Assembly: GCA_021800745.1 (NCBI GenBank)
Contig: JAJYYS010000018.1
Location: forward strand, 1-16,837
Direction of reading: 5' to 3'
From: a bacterium
GTDB taxonomy: Bacteria; SZUA-79; Acidulodesulfobacterales; Acidulodesulfobacteraceae
DNA length: 16,837 nt
Shown in pieces: positions 2,780 through 13,043 of the stretch. Position 1 is the stretch's first letter. Every line of letters starts with the position of its first letter. A program made the translations under genes and the position numbers. The notes under the pieces were generated by a model that was given only the letters and a program-made list of their open reading frames with translations, was not told the DNA's origin and did no database searches.

Positions 2780-4750
2780 TTATTCCGCGCTTTCCACCCT
2801 GTTTCTGCCGTTTTCTTTCGCTTTATATAAGGCATTGTCCGCCCTTTTTATTATTATATCCGCCGTATCGCCGCTCTTGCATGCTGTTACTCCGAAACTG
2901 CATTTAACGTTTATTTTTAAGGGAAAACCGTGGGTTTCTATCGTCAACCTTAATTTTTCGGCAAGTTCGACCGCGCCGCCGACGCTGATATTATTCGATA
3001 TTATCATAAATTCTTCCCCGCCGAACCTTGCAAAAAAATCGTCTTTTCTTATATTCTCTTTGATTAAAGACGCAAGCTCGAAAAGAACTGCATCCCCCGC
3101 CTGATGTCCAAAGGTATCGTTAATTTCCTTAAAATGGTCTATATCGAGCATTATCAATGAAAACTTAAGATTTTTAAGCAGCGTATTGCTTAAATAATAT
3201 TCCAGCTTTGCATCGAACGACCTTCTGTTAGGAATATCGGTTAAACCGTCAACCTCAGAAAGCTCTTTAAACGCGTCTTTTTCTTTTAATAATTTAAGTT
3301 CGTTGACGACCCTGTCGCTTACGTCGGCAATAATAACGAGACCGGTCCATGCATTTTCAAAAAATATCGTGGTCGAAACGATTTCCCCCCAGAACGTTTC
3401 GCCGCTTTTTTTCTTTACTTTTAAAGTATATTTCGATTCAAACTGCTCGCCGCCAAGCCTTCTTTTAATATTTTCCGATAAAAGAAATTTCTCTTCTTCT
3501 CTTACTTCTGCCAAGTCCAACGGACTCAACTCTTTGATAGTTTCTTCGTTATAGCCGAGTATTTTAAAGCCGAAAGGGTTCATATAAACAATTTTTTCGC
3601 GGTACAAATATATTATCGAAGGAATATTCTCGCTCAATATTTTAAAGAATTCGACGGATTTTTTTAACGCATTTTCATAATTTATTTTTTCCGTTATATC
3701 TTGAATGGAATCAATCAGATATTCTTTACCATCTACCTCTATCGGCGCAATAATAAGCTCCACCCTTCTTACTTCATCGTTTTTTAATTTGTGGTTTATA
3801 ATCCTCACCGTGGGATTTTCTGCCCCCCTGTTATACACTTCTAACCTGAATTTTCTGTGTTCTTCTTTATCTTTGAGAGCTATATCCGCAATATTCATAT
3901 CCGTCAGCTCTTTTCTTGTGTATCCGTAAAACTTTTCGGCGGCTTTATTTGCATCTATAATTTTGCCGGTATTTATATTTATTAATAAATGTATGACCGG
4001 GCTGTTATTAAACATTGTTTTAAATCTCTGTTCGCTTTTCCTGATTTCGCCAAAAAATTTATTTAAATAGTATATGGTCAGAATGGCAAAAAAAATAATA
4101 GCCAATGTTCCAAAAATAAACGTAAATGCGGCAAGGCGGACTAAATATACAAAACCGGCCGATATTTTTCGTATAAATGAATATGTGGGCAAAATAGACT
4201 TATCTAAAGAATATTCAAGGAACATTTTGTCCGACAATTTTAAAGACACGAAAGCGTTATATTTAATAAATCTTTTAATTATCGGCTTGGAAACGTATTC
4301 CCAGTGATAATAAGATTTTTTAACGAATGTCGAAAAATATTCGACGTTAGAAAAAGACGCTTTTTTTAAGCCGGTAGAAGGTTTAATGTGCAGTAGGGTA
4401 AATAAATTTTTATAATCCCCGTCGGTCTTATTTATAATAAGGGATAATTTTTTAAAATATTTTCTTATATCATTTTTATAATGAACGGGTTTATAGGTTT
4501 CGTAAAAAACTATCCTTTTCATTAAAAACCCAATTTTGGCAATATCGTCGTTTATTATAGATACGCGTAAAATGACGCTTGAATTCCTGCTTATATAATT
4601 TTTTAAAGGTATAAACGTCCTGTCGAAAGTTACGGCAGCTATTATTATCCATAAAATTATAGCAGCTATTCCTGCAATTATTACAGTTTTATTATTGTTT
4701 ATTAATTTATTCATTAATGGCGATATATATTTCTCGCTCGCACCAAGCAA
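2780..4750 (-). CDS. membrane-bound PAS-PAS-GGDEF diguanylate cyclase
   Basis: A 656-residue sensor that should make cyclic di-GMP from two GTP at the inner membrane. Residues 1-22 are cytoplasmic, with a transmembrane helix at about 23-41. A helical periplasmic sensor region follows to about 200, then a second membrane helix at about 203-229. Two PAS domains follow at about 240-355 and 365-485. The GGDEF domain (about 490-650) has DGLTDIPNRR at 501-510 and an intact GGEEF active site at 577-581. RxxD (R568-D571) lies five residues before it, the canonical product-inhibition I-site. No EAL domain is present. The longest frame starts at a TTG (4750) with a GGGA placed too close to it. An ATG at 4714 (MNKLINNN) is at least as likely and removes 12 residues. 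It starts 9 nt after the ribonuclease gene and is surely in the same operon. The signal sensed is unknown. Confidence 0.93.
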   Translation of the reverse strand: MLGASEKYISPLMNKLINNNKTVIIAGIAAIILWIIIAAVTFDRTFIPLKNYISRNSSVILRVSIINDDIAKIGFLMKRIVFYETYKPVHYKNDIRKYFKKLSLIINKTDGDYKNLFTLLHIKPSTGLKKASFSNVEYFSTFVKKSYYHWEYVSKPIIKRFIKYNAFVSLKLSDKMFLEYSLDKSILPTYSFIRKISAGFVYLVRLAAFTFIFGTLAIIFFAILTIYYLNKFFGEIRKSEQRFKTMFNNSPVIHLLININTGKIIDANKAAEKFYGYTRKELTDMNIADIALKDKEEHRKFRLEVYNRGAENPTVRIINHKLKNDEVRRVELIIAPIEVDGKEYLIDSIQDITEKINYENALKKSVEFFKILSENIPSIIYLYREKIVYMNPFGFKILGYNEETIKELSPLDLAEVREEEKFLLSENIKRRLGGEQFESKYTLKVKKKSGETFWGEIVSTTIFFENAWTGLVIIADVSDRVVNELKLLKEKDAFKELSEVDGLTDIPNRRSFDAKLEYYLSNTLLKNLKFSLIMLDIDHFKEINDTFGHQAGDAVLFELASLIKENIRKDDFFARFGGEEFMIISNNISVGGAVELAEKLRLTIETHGFPLKINVKCSFGVTACKSGDTADIIIKRADNALYKAKENGRNRVESAE

Positions 4751-4759
4751 TCCCGTCAG

Positions 4760-6136
4760 TTAAAAATTTATTTCTTCTCCGTAACCGGGGATATAAACGC
4801 TAAACCCTCTTTCTTCTAATTTGCCTTTATAAATATTCATAACGTCTTCATCTCCGTGTATAAGGCATACTTTTTCAGGCTTGAACTTTAAGGCGGTGAG
4901 CCATTCCATAAGTTCATTCTTGTCCGCGTGCGACGAAAAGCCGTTTATGGTATAAATTTGAGCGTTGACTTCAAAATTTTCGCCCAAAATATACACTTTC
5001 TTTTCTTTTTCGACGATTTTTCTTCCGAGCGTCCCTTTTGCCTGATATCCGACAAATATTACGGCATTTTCTTTTTTCCATATATTATGTTTGAGGTGAT
5101 GCAGAATTCTGCCGCCGTGAAGCATGCCGCTTCCCGCAATTATAATAGCCCTTTCCGATACTTTATTGATATTTTTAGACTCTTCCATATCTTTTACGAT
5201 ACTTAAATACGGAAAATCGAACGGGTCGCCTTTTTTAAAAAGCGGAATATTGTCTTCCTTAAAATAGGCAAAATTTTGGACAAATATATTAGTAACGTTT
5301 AAGGCAAGAGGGGAATCCAAAAAAACCCTGCATTTAGGCAGGAGCCCCTGCTCGTAAAATTCCCTAAGCATATAAAGTATATCCTGCGCTCTTTCCGTAG
5401 CATAGCTTGGAATTAAAACATTGCCGTTATTTTTAAACGTTTCCGTTATAGCCGCCAGAAATTCTTCTTTAGATTCTTTAAAACTTCTGTGATTTCTGTC
5501 GCCATACGTCGTTTCGGTATATACTATATCCGCCTCGTCGGGATATTCGAAATTTCTCACAATCGGTTTTTCTTTGTTTCCAAGGTCGCCCGAAAATATT
5601 GCCGATTTGCCGTTTTTATTTATCTTTACGAAAGAAGAGCCTAAAATATGTCCTGCGTCGTGCGCTTCTACGACAAAGCCGTTTTTTAATTCATGGGGTT
5701 TTCCGTATTCCAAGACCGGGTCGAAATAATCGAAAGAATCCAGTACGTCCGATTCGTCATATAAAAGGCTGGGCTTTTTTTCGTTTCTCCTTAAAGATTT
5801 TTTCAATTCGTATCTATAATTTTCGGACATTATCTTTCCGGTGTCTAAAAGTAAAACCTTGGCAAGCTGGTAAGTCGGCTTTGTGCATAGAATCCTACCC
5901 CTGAATCCGTTTTTTATCAAAAACGGGATTCTGCCGCAATGGTCGATATGGGCGTGGGTCAGGATTAAATAATCTATATTTTTAGGGTCAAAATCTAGCC
6001 TGTAATTTCTGCCTTCAAATTCCCTTTCCTGAAACAAGCCGAAATCCACCATTACGCTCGAACCGTCTTTTTCGTCCATTAACAGGTGGCAGCTTCCCGT
6101 AACGTTTTTTGCCGCTCCGAAAGATTTAACTATCAT
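4760..6136 (-). CDS. MBL-fold beta-CASP ribonuclease
   Basis: A 458-residue cytoplasmic zinc-dependent nuclease of the RNA-specific metallo-beta-lactamase group, related to CPSF73 and bacterial/archaeal beta-CASP RNases. All expected motifs are visible: the start MIVKSFGAAKNVTGSCHLL, motif 2 HAHIDH (61-66), H163 in GHILGSS, D184 in SGDLG, TETTYGDR at 207-214, the beta-CASP region PSYATERAQD (243-252), H403 in SSHADKNE and H428 in HGDED. The active site is therefore complete and the length is standard. Family members cut or trim RNA; the substrate here is unknown. A strong GGAGGGGG site precedes the ATG. Transcription probably starts at the minus-strand half of the promoter at 6376-6404. That would give a leader of over 200 nt that includes the inverted-repeat element at 6171-6334. 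The diguanylate cyclase gene follows 9 nt downstream. Confidence 0.95.
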   Translation of the reverse strand: MIVKSFGAAKNVTGSCHLLMDEKDGSSVMVDFGLFQEREFEGRNYRLDFDPKNIDYLILTHAHIDHCGRIPFLIKNGFRGRILCTKPTYQLAKVLLLDTGKIMSENYRYELKKSLRRNEKKPSLLYDESDVLDSFDYFDPVLEYGKPHELKNGFVVEAHDAGHILGSSFVKINKNGKSAIFSGDLGNKEKPIVRNFEYPDEADIVYTETTYGDRNHRSFKESKEEFLAAITETFKNNGNVLIPSYATERAQDILYMLREFYEQGLLPKCRVFLDSPLALNVTNIFVQNFAYFKEDNIPLFKKGDPFDFPYLSIVKDMEESKNINKVSERAIIIAGSGMLHGGRILHHLKHNIWKKENAVIFVGYQAKGTLGRKIVEKEKKVYILGENFEVNAQIYTINGFSSHADKNELMEWLTALKFKPEKVCLIHGDEDVMNIYKGKLEERGFSVYIPGYGEEINF

Positions 6137-6221
6137 TTATCCCCCTCCCCCATTGAATTTTTCGTTAATTCCTTAATCCTGCATTAGAAAATATTTAGAT
6201 GTTTCTTTTATATGTAAATTC

Positions 6222-6247
6222 TGGATTCCTGCTTTCGCAGGAATGAC
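6222..6247 (+). repeat. REP/dRS3-like palindromic repeat, copy 1
   Basis: This 26-nt unit begins TGGATTCC and ends with GGAATGAC. It contains a perfect hairpin, ATTCCTGC-TTTC-GCAGGAAT. The same consensus, with GGAATGAC and GGATTCC ends, is widespread as short palindromic repeats in proteobacteria (established knowledge). Copy 2 lies inverted at 6280-6305. Confidence 0.6.
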
Positions 6248-6279
6248 ACCCTTTGGGTTAAAACCTCAATTCCCGAATA

Positions 6280-6305
6280 GTCATTCCTGCGAAAGCGGTA
6301 ATCCA
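6280..6305 (-). repeat. REP/dRS3-like palindromic repeat, copy 2 (inverted)
   Basis: Read on the minus strand, this is the same 26-nt unit as copy 1 with two substitutions (TGGATTACCGC instead of TGGATTCCTGC). Its own hairpin is weakened to one mismatch and one G-U pair. Together the two copies can pair into a stem of about 26 bp. Confidence 0.6.
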
Positions 6306-6338
6306 AAAAATAAATTTCTAATGCAGGATTAAGGTAAT

Positions 6339-6367
6339 TTGCATAATTAGACCACATTATATATAAT
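6339..6367 (+). promoter_or_regulatory. promoter for the DUF167-TolC-adaptor-RND operon
   Basis: TTGCAT (6339-6344), a 17-nt spacer and a perfect TATAAT (6362-6367) are followed by a start near 6374 and a leader of about 25 nt. The -35 hexamer abuts the right end of the MITE-like element and overlaps its flanking TAATT. The -10 is inside the perfect palindrome at 6359-6384. Confidence 0.7.
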
Positions 6368-6384
6368 AATGCATTATTATATAT
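6359..6384. promoter_or_regulatory. 26-nt perfect palindrome carrying both -10 boxes
   Basis: The sequence is self-complementary over 13 + 13 bases, centred on TGCA at 6370-6373. It contains only A and T except for the central GC. Each arm holds TATAAT on one strand. It is a candidate operator that would control both directions, or simply the core of a symmetric divergent promoter. Confidence 0.65.
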
Positions 6385-6404
6385 TTCATTAAATTTTTAT
6401 GCAA
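6376..6404 (-). promoter_or_regulatory. mirror-image promoter for the ribonuclease-GGDEF operon
   Basis: On the minus strand, TTGCAT (6404-6399), a 17-nt spacer and TATAAT (6381-6376) repeat exactly the hexamers and spacing of the plus-strand promoter. The -35 box coincides with the start codon region of the DUF167 gene (ATGCAA). The transcript would start near 6369 and cross the MITE-like element before reaching the ribonuclease ATG at 6136. Confidence 0.65.
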
Positions 6405-6632
6405 AAAAAAATTTCGGTTGCCGTAAAAACAGGCTCAAAAACCGAAAGCTATGAAATACTCGGGGACGGAACGCTGAAAATTTCAATCAAAGAACGTCCG
6501 GTCGAAAACAAAGCAAACGAAGCAGTTATAAGAAAAATCGCCGAAATTTACGATAAGCCTAAAAATAAAATTACGATAAAAACCGGCTTAAAGTCCAAAA
6601 ATAAAATAATCGTCATTGACGATTGCGATTGA
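6399..6632 (+). CDS. DUF167 / YggU-family (UPF0235) protein
   Basis: A 77-residue protein with the YggU-type pattern: an opening strand (ISVAVKTGSKTES), then LKISIKERPVENKANEAVIRKIAEIYDKPKNKITIKTGLKSKNKIIVI, which holds the conserved PxxxKANxxV segment. The family has a known fold but no firmly assigned function; it is often encoded near other housekeeping genes. No Shine-Dalgarno sequence is visible before the ATG (only AT bases), so translation may be weak or depend on the unstructured AT-rich leader. It is the first gene of an efflux operon, and its TGA overlaps the likely TTG start of the TolC-like gene. Placement at the head of an RND pump operon is unusual and has no evident functional reason. 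Confidence 0.9.
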   Translation: MQKKISVAVKTGSKTESYEILGDGTLKISIKERPVENKANEAVIRKIAEIYDKPKNKITIKTGLKSKNKIIVIDDCD

Positions 6633-8077: not shown

Positions 8078-9063
8078 AAAATGAAATTTTAATCTTGTCT
8101 TTGTGCCTTGTTTGCGTCATTAGCATGCCGTCATCCGCCTTTGCCGGTTCCGCAATGCCGGTAAAAGCCGTCTATGCGAAAAAAACGACAGCGGTAAAAA
8201 ATATTACGTCGCCAGGAAAAGTTCACAGCAACGGCAGACAGATTTTTACGGCTCCCTTTACCGGAAGGCTGATAGAATCCTTTCCTTTCCCAAAATCCGT
8301 AACCGCCGGAACGGTTATCGCAAGAGTCGTAAGTCCCGGCTTATACGCAAAAATTATTTCGGCGCGGGCTGCGGTAAAATACGCAAAGATAAAGTTTAAA
8401 AGAGAAAAACTTCTATTTCATTACGGAGTTGCGGCAAAAAAAACGCTGGAGCAGGCTGCTTTAAATCTGTCCAATGCGCATTCCTCTCTTCACGCTCTTG
8501 AGTCCCTTGACCGCGAAGGCATCCTTATTTCACGTTTCAAAGGAACCGTGCATTATCTTACCGCCGACGGCTCAATAGTTGCAGCGGCTGGCCCGGTTGC
8601 CGTGTTAAACGGCAAAGGTTTGCCGTGGATAAAAACATATGTAACGCCCTCTCAGAGTTTTAATCTTTACGGCAATATGCGAGTCGGAATAAAAAAAGGG
8701 CGCATTGAGGAAACCGGCAGGATAATTTCAATCGGCGGCAATGCAGCCCATAACGGTCTTGTGCCGGTTTATATAAACCTGCCCGAAAATTCACGTTTAT
8801 TCCCCGGCGAATGGGTTAAACTGCGTTTTGCGGAACCTTCCGCCGCCGCCTTTTCTTTGCCTGAAAGAGCGGTTGTTATGCTTAAAGGTAAGACTTTCGT
8901 ATTTGCCGTAATAAATAACAAAGCGCAAGCAATTTTAATAAAAGTAATAGGACGGAAAGACGGAAAGATATACGTTGAAGGAGATATTAACGCGGGCGAA
9001 CCCGTAATAATATATCCCGTTACGCGCCTTATATCCGGCATCGCCGTGGAGATAAAACATTGA
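8074..9063 (+). CDS. RND periplasmic adaptor (HlyD/CusB-like membrane fusion protein)
   Basis: A 329-residue periplasmic adaptor linking the RND permease to the TolC-like channel. The signal peptide is residues 1-24, cleaved after SSAFA. The lipoyl-like halves are at about 52-90 (IFTAPFTGRLIESFPFPKSVTAGTVIARV) and 148-180 (ILISRFKGTVHYLTADGSIV). They surround a short alpha-hairpin at about 92-145. A beta-barrel follows at about 185-255 and the membrane-proximal domain at 262-325. It is shorter than classical CusB-type adaptors and has no N-terminal metal-binding extension and no methionine cluster. It overlaps the upstream gene by ATGA and the downstream gene by TTGA, so the three are translationally coupled. 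Confidence 0.9.
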   Translation: MKNEILILSLCLVCVISMPSSAFAGSAMPVKAVYAKKTTAVKNITSPGKVHSNGRQIFTAPFTGRLIESFPFPKSVTAGTVIARVVSPGLYAKIISARAAVKYAKIKFKREKLLFHYGVAAKKTLEQAALNLSNAHSSLHALESLDREGILISRFKGTVHYLTADGSIVAAAGPVAVLNGKGLPWIKTYVTPSQSFNLYGNMRVGIKKGRIEETGRIISIGGNAAHNGLVPVYINLPENSRLFPGEWVKLRFAEPSAAAFSLPERAVVMLKGKTFVFAVINNKAQAILIKVIGRKDGKIYVEGDINAGEPVIIYPVTRLISGIAVEIKH

Positions 9064-12000
9064 AAAGATATCTTAATTTTCTTTTAAAAAATAAATTTTC
9101 GATAATTCTTCTATCTTTAATGATTATCGGCATCGGTTGGTTTTATGCGCGCAATATGCCGGAGAGCATTTTCCCCGATGTCAATTTTCCAAGGATTTCC
9201 GTTTTAGTCCACAGCGGCAGACTTCCCGTAAAATTTATGTTAGTGCAGGCGACTAAGCCTCTTGAAGCCGCGGCGGAAGGAGAACCCGGCGTCCGCCTCG
9301 TCCGCTCCCAAACCGGCAACGGCATATCTAAAATTACCGTTTATTTTGAATCTAACATAAAACCGCACATAGCCTATTTAATGCTTGAGTCCCGTTTAAG
9401 TCAGGTAACGCTGCCGCCCGGCAGTAAAATGACCGTCCGGCTGATGTCTCCTAACGTATATCCTTTTGCCGAATATGCCCTTGTTTCTAACCGGCAGGGT
9501 TATAACAGTTCCGATATGATGTCGGTTTTTGCCTTTAAAATCAGACCGGCTTTGCTCTCCGTTAAAGGGATTTATCAGATTGAAGGAACCGGACGCGGCT
9601 GGCCGGAGGTCGCAATAAACTTAAATCCGCTCCGCCTTGCCCAGTATCATATCAGCCCTGAAAACATAGTAAAAATACTCCGGTCGTATCAAGGACCTTT
9701 TTTTTCCGGAGTGATGGATGCATATCATAAGCAGTTCGTAGTCGCAACTACTCCGCGTCCGGCGGATACAAAAGACCTGTCCAATCTTATGATTCCGGTA
9801 AAGCATACTCTTCTGCCATTAAAAACCTTGGGCGATATAAATATAAGCCCTCCTCCTTTAATCCGCGAAGCGGCGGTAAGCGGTTACCGCCACGCCCTTA
9901 TTATCGATATTATGCCGGATTTAAATATAAATACGGTTAAAGTTGCCGGAAATATCAGCAGCCGCATCAAATTTTTAAACAACCGCCTACCGAAAGGTTT
10001 GAAAATAGTTTCCGTTTATAATACGAGCAGGCTTATCCATTCTAATCTTAAAGACGTCTGGATTGCGCTTATTCTCGGCGGTTTAATTGCGTTGTTCGTA
10101 GTATTCCTTTTTTTAAAGCGCATGGACGGCGCTCTTATAGCCCTTGCAGTGATACCCGTTTCGGTATCTTTAACCGTCGTTATTCTCAATGCTTTAGGCT
10201 TCGGTCTTAACATTATGACGCTCGGCGGATTAACCGCTTCGATAGGAGCTATGATAGACCATGCGATTGTTATCGTGGAAAGAGGTTTTCATAAAATGAA
10301 AGGAGAAACGGGCGGAAAAGCCGATGCGGATGAATCGGCCCTTGAACGTGTCGGCAAAATACTTCCGCTTATGACTGCGGCGACAATAACGTCTTCTATA
10401 GTTTTTATACCTCTTATCTTTATACACGGAACGCTCGGCATCCTTTTTAAACAAATGGCGCTTTCTATAGTCATTGCGCTGATAACGTCGCAGTTGACGG
10501 CTTTAACCCTTACGCCGATACTCACCGTAATGCTTGCAAAAAGAAAAAGCGGCGGGAGCGGCGGTAAAATTTATAAAAAAAACAGGCTTAGGAAAATTTA
10601 CGGCTATATACTCATCAAAGGTATGCGGTCGCCGCGGCTTGCGTTGCCCGTTATTCTTGCATTGATAATTGCGATTGCGCTTTCTTTATTTTATCTGAGG
10701 ACGGCCTTTCTACCGAAATGGGACGAAGGGATTTTTGTGGTCCCGTTCAGGACTCCCGTAGGAAGCAGCGTTGCCGGTACCGAAAGAACCGGAAAATATC
10801 TTATGCGCATCGCTAAAGAAAACCCGAACGTGAAAACAGTTTCCTTAGTAGTCGGCAGAAGCTTGGACAACCCCTATTCCACGCCGAATAAAGGCGATTT
10901 GACAATCGTTTTAAGAAGAAACCGCGCCGAAACTACAGAAAAAATAATGAGAGAACTTTATAATAAATTTCATAATGCGGCGCCCAACCTTATAGACCTG
11001 AATTTTCAGCAGATTATGGTAAACCGTCTCGGATTTTTATCCGGTTCGCATACGCCTTTAGAGGTTATGCTTTTCGGCAAAAGTTCCGGCGCGCTCAGAA
11101 AATACGGTAAAACTTTAGCAGGCAAATTAAGAAAAACCGGCGATTTTCAATATGTCAATTTTAAATCTCCCTCCGCGGGACCGGAAATAACTCTTACGCC
11201 GTCCAATTATGCGGCGGTTTACGGCATACCGCCTCCCGTTATAGCGGATAAAGTAAAAAGACTCCTATGGGGACAGAAAGCCGGTTTTTTGCTGTACGGC
11301 GAACAGGTACTACCCGTACGCGTCTTTCTTAAAAAGAAATCCGCCTCCTTGTCGGAGCTAAAAAATTGGCCTTTTACCCTTAAAAACGGAACGCATACGA
11401 GATTAGATTATATTTCTAAAATACGCGTCAAGAAAGCCGTTCCTTTTATAACCCACCAGAATATGGCTCCTTATGCTTATATCTTCATTCAGCCGGTTAA
11501 AGGAGAAGGGCTTTCGGCAGGCGCAGCTAAAGCGCGCTCTATTATCGATTCGATGCATCTTCCGCCGTCGGTTACCGCATCTATCGGAGGCTATTATCAT
11601 TCGCAGGTAAAGAGCTTCAAGCAGATGGCCGTTATGCTTGTCTTTGCGCTGATTCTTATTTTTGTTTTTTTCGGTTTTCAGTTCGCAAGCCAGCGCGCGG
11701 CAATCGCATCTATGATAGCTATTGCGCTGTCTGGAGCCGGAGCGCTTGCCGCTCTTTTAATAACGGGCATAGAACTCGACAGCACGGCATTTCTCGGCAT
11801 TCTTTTAGTTTTCGCTATTTCCACCAATAACGCGATTCTTATATTCGCAAGGTCGAGGCAGATCAGCGGCGCGGTTAACTCTTCTCCAAGCCCGTCGTCT
11901 GTTTTTCTTGCCGCCAGAGAACGCCTCCGCCCGATACTTATGACTATGCTTGCGGATGTTTTCGGTTTTCTGCCGCTGGCTATAGGCATAGGAAGAGGCA

Positions 12001-12122
12001 CGGACCTCCTTAAGCCCCTTTCTGTTGCGGTTATGGGAGGCTTGTTAATATCCGTTTTTATGTCCCTGTGGCTTGCTCCCGTTATATACGGCGGGCTTTT
12101 TATGAAGAAAAAATCCGCATAA
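9060..12122 (+). CDS. RND-superfamily efflux permease (CusA/AcrB-like)
   Basis: A full-length 1020-residue proton-driven inner-membrane pump with the usual plan: TM1 at about 13-30, a large periplasmic porter loop (31-325), TM2-TM6 (about 333-495), TM7 at 528-547, a second porter loop (548-850) and TM8-TM12 (855-1015). The TM4 proton-relay aspartate is D400 in SIGAMIDHAIVIVE. TM10 reads ISTNNAILIFA (920-930) with asparagine where AcrB has lysine and CusA has glutamate; this is known in other RND branches. RLRPILMT (956-962) precedes TM11. The early part (FPDVNFPRISV, GRLPVKFMLVQATKPLE) is closer to CusA-like pumps than to AcrB. The substrate is not predictable. The start is a TTG with GGAG 9 nt upstream; no in-frame ATG fits. 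It ends 42 nt before a convergent operon. Confidence 0.95.
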   Translation: MKRYLNFLLKNKFSIILLSLMIIGIGWFYARNMPESIFPDVNFPRISVLVHSGRLPVKFMLVQATKPLEAAAEGEPGVRLVRSQTGNGISKITVYFESNIKPHIAYLMLESRLSQVTLPPGSKMTVRLMSPNVYPFAEYALVSNRQGYNSSDMMSVFAFKIRPALLSVKGIYQIEGTGRGWPEVAINLNPLRLAQYHISPENIVKILRSYQGPFFSGVMDAYHKQFVVATTPRPADTKDLSNLMIPVKHTLLPLKTLGDINISPPPLIREAAVSGYRHALIIDIMPDLNINTVKVAGNISSRIKFLNNRLPKGLKIVSVYNTSRLIHSNLKDVWIALILGGLIALFVVFLFLKRMDGALIALAVIPVSVSLTVVILNALGFGLNIMTLGGLTASIGAMIDHAIVIVERGFHKMKGETGGKADADESALERVGKILPLMTAATITSSIVFIPLIFIHGTLGILFKQMALSIVIALITSQLTALTLTPILTVMLAKRKSGGSGGKIYKKNRLRKIYGYILIKGMRSPRLALPVILALIIAIALSLFYLRTAFLPKWDEGIFVVPFRTPVGSSVAGTERTGKYLMRIAKENPNVKTVSLVVGRSLDNPYSTPNKGDLTIVLRRNRAETTEKIMRELYNKFHNAAPNLIDLNFQQIMVNRLGFLSGSHTPLEVMLFGKSSGALRKYGKTLAGKLRKTGDFQYVNFKSPSAGPEITLTPSNYAAVYGIPPPVIADKVKRLLWGQKAGFLLYGEQVLPVRVFLKKKSASLSELKNWPFTLKNGTHTRLDYISKIRVKKAVPFITHQNMAPYAYIFIQPVKGEGLSAGAAKARSIIDSMHLPPSVTASIGGYYHSQVKSFKQMAVMLVFALILIFVFFGFQFASQRAAIASMIAIALSGAGALAALLITGIELDSTAFLGILLVFAISTNNAILIFARSRQISGAVNSSPSPSSVFLAARERLRPILMTMLADVFGFLPLAIGIGRGTDLLKPLSVAVMGGLLISVFMSLWLAPVIYGGLFMKKKSA

Positions 12123-12164: not shown

Positions 12165-13043
12165 TCAGCAGGGGGCGGGAGATATATCATTATTGCTTTC
12201 AAGGCTGAATTTATCGAGCTTCAAATTTATTTCAATAGCCGTATCTTTCAAACTTTCTTTTAACTTTTCGACGTTAACGATATAAGAAACGGCATAGTAA
12301 GGACATTTTTCCCGCATGCACCCATGTGGATGCAGTTCCTTGAAATTGCATGTTATATCTACGTCGTTATCTATTAAAAGAAAATTAAAATCTTCGTAAA
12401 GGCTTGCGGAGATTATCTCAAGCGCCTTAAAAAGATAAGCTTTACAGCAGGAAGGCCCGGTTAAATCAAACACGGCTTTGGAAAGAAGAGCCGTAATCTT
12501 CATGGTTATTTTTTGTTCTTTATCCTTGCCGCAGACAGAACCGGTTAAAATTGAATATATGATACCGCCCGCAGGAACTATGCCGCAAACCCCGCTCAAG
12601 CCGCAGTAGCCGCCTACCGCCTGCTTCGAGAGCCTGTAAAACGATTCTTCGATATCGGCTCCGGAAATATGTATATACCCCCTGTTTTTTAACGAAGCTA
12701 AAACCGCCCCCGTTAAAATATAAGCATGATGGCATCCTAACATAGGCACCGTTACGTTTGGGTTATTCAAAATATCGAATGTAATTTCGAAAGGGTTTTT
12801 GCCGCCGGTTGATAATATAAAATCTTTTATATAATTGAAGGAAGACAGGTTATGGCAGTCGTCGCAGACGTAATGAGACCTATCCGACGAACAAACGATA
12901 CTCCCCTTTTCTTTTTTGCCGCAATAAAAACAGGTCAATTCAAAGGCGGACGACAGATATTCAAGGGGATGTCCGCATATTAAGCAATTAGATTTATGTT
13001 CCCGTTCCTGTTCGGCACGAGAACCGCCGGGCTTATTAGACAT
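12165..13043 (-). CDS. DUF5714-type cysteine-rich protein of unknown function
   Basis: A 292-residue soluble protein with 17 cysteines. The amino third looks like a zinc-ribbon set: CLIC (20-23), CFYC (38-41), C51 and HYVCDDCH (58-64). The rest carries MLGCHHAY (101-108), GGYCGLSGVCGIVPAGG (144-160), GPSCCKAYLF (197-206), and HPHGCMREKCPYY (238-250). These pairs could bind zinc, iron-sulfur or another thiophilic metal. I recognise the pattern (MP..CHH, GYCG..G.CG, G..CCK) as that of DUF5714 proteins, for which I know no experimentally proven activity; the match is by eye. It is the last gene of an operon with a TauE/SafE permease and a CX5C protein, starting 10 nt after the latter. Its ribosome binding site is weak (GAGAAA), so coupling to the upstream gene is likely. 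Confidence 0.8.
   Translation of the reverse strand: MSNKPGGSRAEQEREHKSNCLICGHPLEYLSSAFELTCFYCGKKEKGSIVCSSDRSHYVCDDCHNLSSFNYIKDFILSTGGKNPFEITFDILNNPNVTVPMLGCHHAYILTGAVLASLKNRGYIHISGADIEESFYRLSKQAVGGYCGLSGVCGIVPAGGIIYSILTGSVCGKDKEQKITMKITALLSKAVFDLTGPSCCKAYLFKALEIISASLYEDFNFLLIDNDVDITCNFKELHPHGCMREKCPYYAVSYIVNVEKLKESLKDTAIEINLKLDKFSLESNNDISPAPC

What the first reader, a model, noticed from the sequence alone, without database searches (positions are those of the whole stretch)
6339..6404. Mirror-symmetric bidirectional promoter built on a 26-nt perfect palindrome
On both strands the same TTGCAT, the same 17-nt spacing and the same perfect TATAAT appear, reflected about 6371/6372. The two -10 boxes share a self-complementary 26-mer. 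The minus-strand -35 coincides with the ATG of the DUF167 gene. The two transcripts would overlap by a few bases at their 5' ends and compete for polymerase. This would couple expression of a ribonuclease/diguanylate cyclase operon to an efflux operon, possibly through one regulator binding the palindrome.
Basis: partly seen in the sequence, partly recalled or inferred. Interest (0 to 1): 0.75.

Follow-up and report, generated by a model that had tools for sequence, protein, structure and literature searches.

The report
Two conserved promoters facing each other
Two opposite operons, one for an RNA-cutting enzyme and one for an efflux pump, appear to be read from a pair of promoters that point at each other; related bacteria keep the pair, while the striking perfect palindrome between them was seen only in this genome and is probably incidental.

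Summary
The sequence observation is correct. Both strands carry TTGCAT-17-TATAAT, mirrored about 6371/6372, with a perfect 26-nt palindrome at 6359-6384. Relatives change the interpretation. The same gene order (beta-CASP nuclease left; [DUF167-]TolC-adaptor-RND right, whole or cut by contig ends) occurs in 10 of 16 genus genomes. Both promoters recur there as modules, while the linker between the -10 boxes runs from 8 to 55 nt. Of 12 loci with the nuclease gene, only the window has the perfect 26-mer; the nearest relative breaks 2 of 13 pairs, and G011 keeps 12 of 13 around an extra base. The palindrome core is no commoner in 16 genus genomes than its reversed control (16 vs 16 sites), so a regulon-wide operator is unlikely. 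The conserved feature is a face-to-face promoter pair. In the window, estimated starts lie 5 bp apart without overlap; in 8 relatives the 5' ends would overlap by 12-43 nt. Likely mechanism: RNA polymerases exclude or collide with one another at two housekeeping promoters (inferred, not measured). It is a new member of a known kind (overlapping divergent promoters, such as pLS20 Pc/Pr): real but modest.

The parts
6339..6344 (+). -35 box of the rightward promoter P+ (TTGCAT; or TTTGCA from 6338 with an 18-nt spacer)
   Evidence: read directly; exact TTGCAT-17-TATAAT in 9 of 12 loci with the nuclease gene
6362..6367 (+). -10 box of P+ (TATAAT)
6399..6404 (-). -35 box of the leftward promoter P- (TTGCAT), coincident with ATGCAA, the first two codons of DUF167
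6376..6381 (-). -10 box of P- (TATAAT)
   Evidence: exact TTGCAT-17-TATAAT in 11 of 12 loci
6359..6384 (.). perfect 26-nt palindrome spanning both -10 boxes and the 8-nt linker
   Evidence: perfect in the window only, 0 of 11 relatives
6369..6374 (.). estimated start points: leftward about 6369-6370, rightward about 6373-6374 (inferred from 6-7 nt after each -10)
   Evidence: inference from box positions
6171..6334 (.). MITE-like repeat with terminal inverted repeats, in the leader of the leftward transcript, ending 4 nt from the P+ -35
   Evidence: many genomic matches; inverted arms; leader fold z -7.9; at this place in the window and G001 only, of 12 loci
4760..6136 (-). beta-CASP metallo-beta-lactamase RNase-like protein, first gene of the leftward operon
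   Evidence: Beta-Casp, RMMBL, Lactamase_B
2780..4750 (-). PAS-GGDEF protein (putative diguanylate cyclase), second gene of the leftward operon
6399..6632 (+). DUF167 (YggU family) gene, first gene of the rightward operon
   Evidence: PF02594
6623..8077 (+). TolC-type outer membrane efflux protein
   Evidence: PF02321
8074..9063 (+). RND periplasmic adaptor (sub-threshold match)
   Evidence: TIGR01730, 68.9 bits vs cut-off 94.9; no Pfam match
9060..12122 (+). RND efflux permease
   Evidence: ACR_tran

Best explanation
Two housekeeping-type promoters face each other between divergent operons, with -35 boxes outside and -10 boxes inside. P+ drives DUF167-TolC-adaptor-RND and P- drives the beta-CASP nuclease and PAS-GGDEF genes. 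In the window the two melting regions nearly coincide, so only one RNA polymerase should occupy the site at a time. In relatives with longer linkers each transcript would start inside the other's promoter region and the 5' ends would overlap. What selection has kept is each promoter and their interleaved order, not the symmetry; the near-palindrome appears where the linker is short (8-9 nt) and the two TATAAT contexts abut. Shown: boxes, positions, conservation, gene order, linker variation, lack of a conserved perfect palindrome. Inferred: that both promoters are active, the start points, polymerase exclusion, the operon limits, and any coupling of the operons.
For: Both boxes and spacing are exact on both strands in the window. 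The nuclease gene at 84% identity or more is in 13 of 30 family genomes: 10 of 16 genus genomes plus 3 of two other genera. Genes of the TolC-adaptor-RND operon lie across the intergenic region in all 10 genus genomes. P+ is exact TTGCAT-17-TATAAT in 9 of 12 loci and P- in 11 of 12. Among 149 TTGCATN{16,18}TATAAT hits in 16 genus genomes, every facing pair within 120 nt lies at this locus, in 8 genomes (my reading of the listing). The genus uses a TTGACA/TATAAT promoter type (307 hits vs 46 in reversed controls); TTGCAT is a weaker version (149 vs 49 reversed; 103 at the wrong spacing). In G021 no TolC, adaptor or RND match lies within the 4 kb held on that side and the DUF167 frame has a stop; there P- is exact but P+ has no correctly spaced pair. 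Changes in the G001 and G011 linkers and flanks leave both -10 hexamers intact.
Against: No transcript data exist. The P- region overlaps the leader and start codon of the rightward gene, so its conservation is confounded. Scoring with recalled E. coli weights ranked P+ first on its strand in 9 of 12 loci and P- in 8 of 12; other leftward sites scored higher in G006, G009 and G010, and G004 gave a different register. G004 and G008 have P+ as TTGCAT-18-TATTAT, and G004 has P- as TACTAT. The wrong-spacing control for TTGCAT is high (103 vs 149, of which 18 are this locus), so TTGCAT as a general -35 is only mildly supported. The loci are related and not independent. In E. coli all five bidirectional promoters tested were too weak at basal level for competition (PMC12825309 abstract), so exclusion may be weak in practice.
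Confidence: 0.75

Rival explanations
1. The palindrome is an operator: a dimeric regulator binds it and blocks or switches both promoters at once, as in the E. coli bioA/bioB and argE/argCBH face-to-face promoter pairs (recalled).
For: The geometry suits such an operator; the 26-mer is unlikely by chance locally; short-linker relatives keep partial dyads: 11 of 13 pairs in G001, 12 of 13 around one extra base in G011, 9 of 13 in G015:C66; a 28-nt palindrome with a similar core exists at another locus in G011; a TetR-family gene lies further left on the same strand (794-1414).
Against: Perfect in 0 of 11 relatives; linker 8-55 nt; core with up to 2 mismatches at 16 sites vs 16 for the reversed control in 16 genomes. 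Fur, PerR, Zur and BirA consensus sequences (recalled) do not stand out from shuffles except PerR in G009 (7 of 60) and BirA in G021 (4 of 60). The TetR gene was not found beside the leftward operon in the 4 relatives of this gene order for which 4 kb beyond the nuclease gene are held (L099, L103, L104, L108). An ArgR-like match (recalled consensus, 2 mismatches) recurs in 8 of 12 rows with 1-10 of 60 shuffles as good; it lies over the conserved rightward leader and start codon, not the palindrome.
Confidence: 0.13
2. AT-rich coincidence: at most one of the two sites is a working promoter, and the other operon starts elsewhere or is read through.
For: The 62-bp region is 85% A+T; both -35 boxes are weak; other leftward sites score higher in three relatives; a loose facing pair arose in 264 of 200,000 local simulations.
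Against: Both sites persist with exact hexamers and spacing in 9 of 12 loci while the linker turns over; the exact mirrored pair arose in 0 of 200,000 simulations.
Confidence: 0.12

Closest known systems
Overlapping divergent promoters Pc/Pr of plasmid pLS20 (PMC4207663, passages seen)
   Same: Two promoters on opposite strands coincide or overlap, serve divergent genes, and polymerase is thought to bind only one at a time.
   Different: In the authors' favoured assignment the -10 and -35 boxes of one promoter coincide with the -35 and -10 of the other, and a regulator encoded on one side controls both. Here the -10 boxes are 8 nt apart and no regulator is encoded by the two genes next to the leftward promoter or by the rightward operon.
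Bidirectional promoters in the sense of Warman and colleagues (PMC12825309: abstract, introduction, discussion, passages; PMC10268837: passages), including the efflux example PacrA/acrR
   Same: TATAAT symmetry lets RNA polymerase engage in either orientation; divergent RNAs; steric exclusion; in PacrA/acrR one side is an RND efflux operon.
   Different: Those share or reciprocally overlap one -10 element, with starts 7-25 bp apart (most often 18). Here there are two separate -10 boxes and an estimated 5 bp between starts, with overlap in relatives.
E. coli bioA/bioBFCD and argE/argCBH face-to-face promoters with a shared palindromic operator (recalled; two searches gave only listings and none was read)
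   Same: Facing promoters between divergent operons with a dyad over the promoter region.
   Different: No conserved perfect dyad here; no BirA-type operator in the window; an ArgR-like match lies over the leader, not the dyad.

Membership tests
Overlapping (face-to-face) divergent promoters | Two promoters on opposite strands with interleaved core elements, between divergent genes | tested here: met
   at sequence level: window and 8 of 11 relatives with both modules exact; G004 and G008 have a weaker P+, G021 lacks P+
Overlapping (face-to-face) divergent promoters | Both promoters are active and exclude each other | not testable with these tools
   needs start mapping and in vitro transcription
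Bidirectional promoter (Warman type) | -10 elements on opposite strands reciprocally overlap | tested here: not met
   6362-6367 and 6376-6381 are separated by 8 nt
Bidirectional promoter (Warman type) | Divergent starts 7-25 bp apart | tested here: inconclusive
   estimated 5 bp from box positions; no mapped starts; definition from PMC10268837 passages
Palindromic operator controlling a divergent promoter pair | Dyad conserved across orthologous regions | tested here: not met
   perfect in 0 of 11 relatives; best ungapped 26-nt dyad has 2-6 mismatched pairs; G011 has 12 of 13 pairs if one central base is skipped
Palindromic operator controlling a divergent promoter pair | Operator recurs at other targets of a regulon | tested here: not met
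   16 sites vs 16 control sites in 16 genomes at up to 2 mismatches; a one-target regulator is not excluded
Palindromic operator controlling a divergent promoter pair | A cognate regulator binds it | not testable with these tools
   binding needs experiment; the nearest regulator gene seen, TetR at 794-1414, is not beside this operon in 4 of 4 relatives with enough DNA held

The most novel reading that the evidence does not exclude
A regulator-free seesaw: across this genus a nuclease/c-di-GMP operon and an RND efflux operon are set against each other only by polymerases facing each other on a short stretch. The linker length (8 to 55 nt) tunes the mode of interference, from mutual exclusion at one melted site to head-on collision with antisense 5' overlap, so the genus offers a natural length series for measuring it. 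The short linker may have been drawn into a near-perfect palindrome by template switching.
Probability: 0.2. Interest if true: 0.5.

Novelty: new member of a known kind. Interest (0 to 1): 0.3.

Why it matters
It suggests that a striking palindrome between divergent genes can be a by-product of two promoters packed together rather than a regulator's binding site, and that comparing relatives separates the two. The genus gives a natural series of similar promoter pairs at nine different linker lengths (8, 9, 24, 29, 34, 36, 38, 46 and 55 nt), useful for testing how facing promoters interfere.

Tried and rejected
Operator search: Fur, PerR, Zur, BirA and ArgR consensus sequences, typed from recall, were compared with 12 regions and 60 Markov shuffles each. 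Isolated rows beat most shuffles (PerR in G009, 7 of 60; BirA in G021, 4 of 60). The ArgR-like pattern has 2 mismatches in 8 of 12 rows (1-10 of 60 shuffles as good), always the same conserved leader stretch; I did not take it as an operator but it is not excluded.

TetR gene (794-1414) as the regulator: not found beside the operon in 4 of 4 relatives of this gene order with 4 kb held beyond the nuclease gene. Binding was not tested.

Palindrome as a repeat family: partly similar stretches at other loci (L091-L098) have other neighbours. They include a 28-nt palindrome just upstream of an ATPase-like gene in G011 (name recalled from its sequence), not followed further.

TATAAT-N8-ATTATA counted genus-wide: 103 vs 47 in reversed controls. 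Part of the excess is a repeated element, so no conclusion was drawn.

Column conservation: P+ rows were chosen by the promoter pattern (G004, G008 and G021 not included, G006 dropped as a near-copy of G015, G015:C66 included), and P- rows were anchored on ATGCAA, so the high values of those hexamers are partly by construction and are not used as evidence. The P- -10 (TATAAT in 10 of 11 rows) is not by construction. G015:C66 has no nuclease match in its contig and was left out of the 12; it has TTGTAT-17-TATAAT and TTGCAT-17-TATAGT, linker 8. For G021 the script printed a linker of 16 and an overlap of 4, but these rest on a spurious P+ assignment and are not used.

Literature: searches were listings. 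Seen: PMC12825309 (abstract, introduction, discussion, passages), PMC10268837 (passages), PMC4207663 (passages). The bio and arg examples are recalled. No search was made for prior description of this particular locus.

Full report
1. The observation. The two -10 boxes and the 8-nt linker lie in a perfect 26-nt palindrome, 6359-6384, and the symmetry returns in a 9-nt outer arm, TTTGCATAA/TTATGCAAA. In first-order Markov simulations a perfect palindrome of at least 26 nt appeared in 44 of 200,000 sequences of the local 62-bp composition (85% A+T), in 2 of 40,000 of the 262-bp intergenic region, and in 2 of 300 of the whole window. The exact mirrored pair appeared in 0 of 200,000 and a loose facing pair in 264 of 200,000. 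It is the only palindrome of 16 nt or more in the window. TTGCAT matches the -35 consensus TTGACA at 3 of 6 positions; the scan prefers TTTGCA with an 18-nt spacer, 10 of 12 overall.

2. Orientation. The -35 boxes are outside and the -10 boxes inside, so the promoters face each other although the genes diverge. The rightward leader would be 25 nt long. The leftward leader would be 233 nt and would carry a MITE-like repeat (6171-6334); folded as RNA, 6137-6370 is far more stable than shuffles (-79.5 vs mean -44.2 kcal/mol, z -7.9).

3. Genes. Leftward: a beta-CASP metallo-beta-lactamase nuclease-like protein (Beta-Casp, RMMBL) and a PAS-GGDEF protein; three further genes on the same strand follow after a 203-nt gap (2226-2576, 1585-2181 and a TetR-family regulator at 794-1414), and whether they belong to the same transcript is unknown. 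Rightward: DUF167, TolC-type OEP, adaptor, RND permease. The adaptor has no Pfam match and falls below the NCBIfam cut-off, so its name rests on a sub-threshold match and its place in the operon.

4. Relatives. The window's own assembly is not held; the nearest genome is G001. Of 30 family genomes, 21 have a nuclease homologue at E 1e-60 or better; 13 of these are at 84% identity or more, 10 of them among the 16 genus genomes. All 10 have genes of the TolC-adaptor-RND operon, whole or cut by the contig end or the piece fetched, on the other side of the intergenic region. G021, of another genus, has the nuclease and a DUF167 remnant with a stop in the frame, but no TolC, adaptor or RND match in the 4 kb held on that side. 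G023 and G020 have no match to the other window genes in the 4.4 kb held and no TTGCAT on either strand in the 300 nt upstream of the nuclease gene. The named records behind nine of the ten same-order loci (L099-L106, L108) are MAGs titled only 'bacterium isolate'; L107, with other neighbours, is titled Deltaproteobacteria.

5. What is conserved. In the 12 loci with the nuclease gene (window, 10 genus relatives, G021) P+ is exact TTGCAT-17-TATAAT in 9 of 12 and P- in 11 of 12. The exceptions: G004 and G008 have P+ as TTGCAT-18-TATTAT; G004 has P- as TACTAT; G021 has no correctly spaced P+, so its linker is not counted. The linker between the -10 boxes is 8 (window, G001), 9 (G011), 24 (G009), 29 (G010), 34 (G005), 36 (G003), 38 (G006, G015), 46 (G008) and 55 nt (G004). 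Estimated 5' ends therefore overlap by 12-43 nt in 8 of these 11 loci and not in the three short-linker loci. G006 carries a 34-nt tandem duplication of all of P+. In the tree of the nuclease gene the window pairs with G001 (99/99), while G011 (linker 9) pairs with G009 (linker 24) (95/94), so the linker length has changed more than once.

6. The perfect palindrome is not conserved. The longest perfect ungapped palindrome in the region is 26 nt in the window and 6-16 nt in the 11 relatives; the best ungapped 26-nt dyad has 2 mismatched pairs in G001 and 3-6 in the others. Against this, G011 has 12 of 13 pairs if one extra central base is skipped and G015:C66 has 9 of 13, so the short-linker loci share a partial dyad. 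In G001 and G011 the changes fall in the linker and flanks and leave both TATAAT boxes intact. The 18-nt core with up to 2 mismatches occurs at 16 sites in 16 genus genomes, the reversed control also at 16. G011 also has a 28-nt palindrome with a similar core at an unrelated locus; that locus was fetched for its similarity, so it is not an unbiased count.

7. The promoter type. In 16 genus genomes TTGACAN{16,18}TATAAT gives 307 hits vs 46 for the reversed control, so a housekeeping-type consensus applies. TTGCATN{16,18}TATAAT gives 149 vs 49, and 103 at a wrong spacing of 22-24; 18 of the 149 are this locus, so TTGCAT as a general -35 is only mildly supported. All facing pairs within 120 nt in the listing lie at this locus (8 of 16 genomes). 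Scoring with recalled E. coli weights ranks P+ first on its strand in 9 of 12 loci and P- in 8 of 12; in G006, G009 and G010 another leftward site scores higher, and G004 gives another register.

8. A natural test. In G021, where no rightward operon is found beside the nuclease gene and DUF167 is broken, P- is exact and P+ lacks a correctly spaced pair. In G015:C66, where no nuclease match is found in the contig, P- has TATAGT and P+ keeps TATAAT but has TTGTAT. These are single cases, but they run in the direction expected if each promoter serves its own gene, and in G021 the start codon of a working rightward gene is not a likely cause of the conservation of P-.

9. Mechanism. The most likely picture is two housekeeping promoters that polymerases cannot use at the same time when the linker is short, and that interfere by collision and antisense overlap when it is longer. 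Exclusion at overlapping promoters is described for pLS20 (PMC4207663, passages) and for bidirectional promoters, where competition appeared only when transcription was raised (PMC12825309, abstract, introduction and discussion). So at basal activity the two operons may be nearly independent. A regulator-binding operator is the main rival and is disfavoured by point 6; the recalled Fur, PerR, Zur and BirA operators stand out only in isolated rows, an ArgR-like stretch recurs over the rightward leader in 8 of 12 rows, and the TetR gene is not beside the operon in 4 of 4 relatives with enough DNA held.

10. Standing. This is a new member of a known kind: overlapping divergent promoters. It does not meet the definition of a Warman-type bidirectional promoter because the -10 boxes do not overlap; the estimated start distance (5 bp) is below their 7-25 bp but no start is mapped (PMC10268837, passages). 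On checking, the confidence in the main reading was set to 0.75 (from 0.76) and the operator rival to 0.13 (from 0.12) because of the G011 partial dyad, the recurring ArgR-like stretch and the TetR gene.

Noticed in passing
6399-6632 and relatives L081, L083-L088: In 7 relatives without DUF167 at this place the TolC-type protein begins with what looks like the first 11 codons of DUF167 (MQKKIS-AVKT or a variant) followed by its own signal-like segment, as if a deletion had fused the two starts. The 7 form one supported clade (98/99) in the nuclease tree.
   Followed up: partly
6171-6334: MITE-like repeat with terminal inverted repeats in the nuclease leader. The search with 6160-6400 gave 49 matching pieces each in G001 and G002 (not all candidates scored), and 19 of 31 genomes had a match. 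Of the 12 loci only the window and G001 carry its exact end sequence here; G015:C66 has a longer related stretch.
   Followed up: partly
L003, L004, L006 (DUF167 near 1501): DUF167 copies also sit next to the DUF5714 gene (window homologue 12165-13043) in G005, G010 and G015; G015 and G008 have two copies, one of them at the promoter pair.
   Followed up: no
L083 1251-1313 (G006:C33): 34-nt tandem duplication of the entire P+ promoter.
   Followed up: no
L105 and L106 (G004, G008), upstream of P+: TTGCATAAT-like boxes repeated at steps of 11-13 nt just upstream of P+, possibly a regulator site in those two relatives (read by eye).
   Followed up: no
L093 2386-2413, L091 2438-2459: 28-nt perfect palindrome ATGATATTATAATGCATTATAATATCAT just upstream of an ATPase-like gene in G011, 22 nt of it perfect in G009.
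   Followed up: no
4760-6136: The best NCBIfam matches of the nuclease are Cas14 of type VII CRISPR and aCPSF1, both well below their cut-offs.
   Followed up: no
12165-13043: DUF5714 protein with a sub-threshold match to the metal-binding double selenoprotein MbdU (302 of 600 bits).
   Followed up: no
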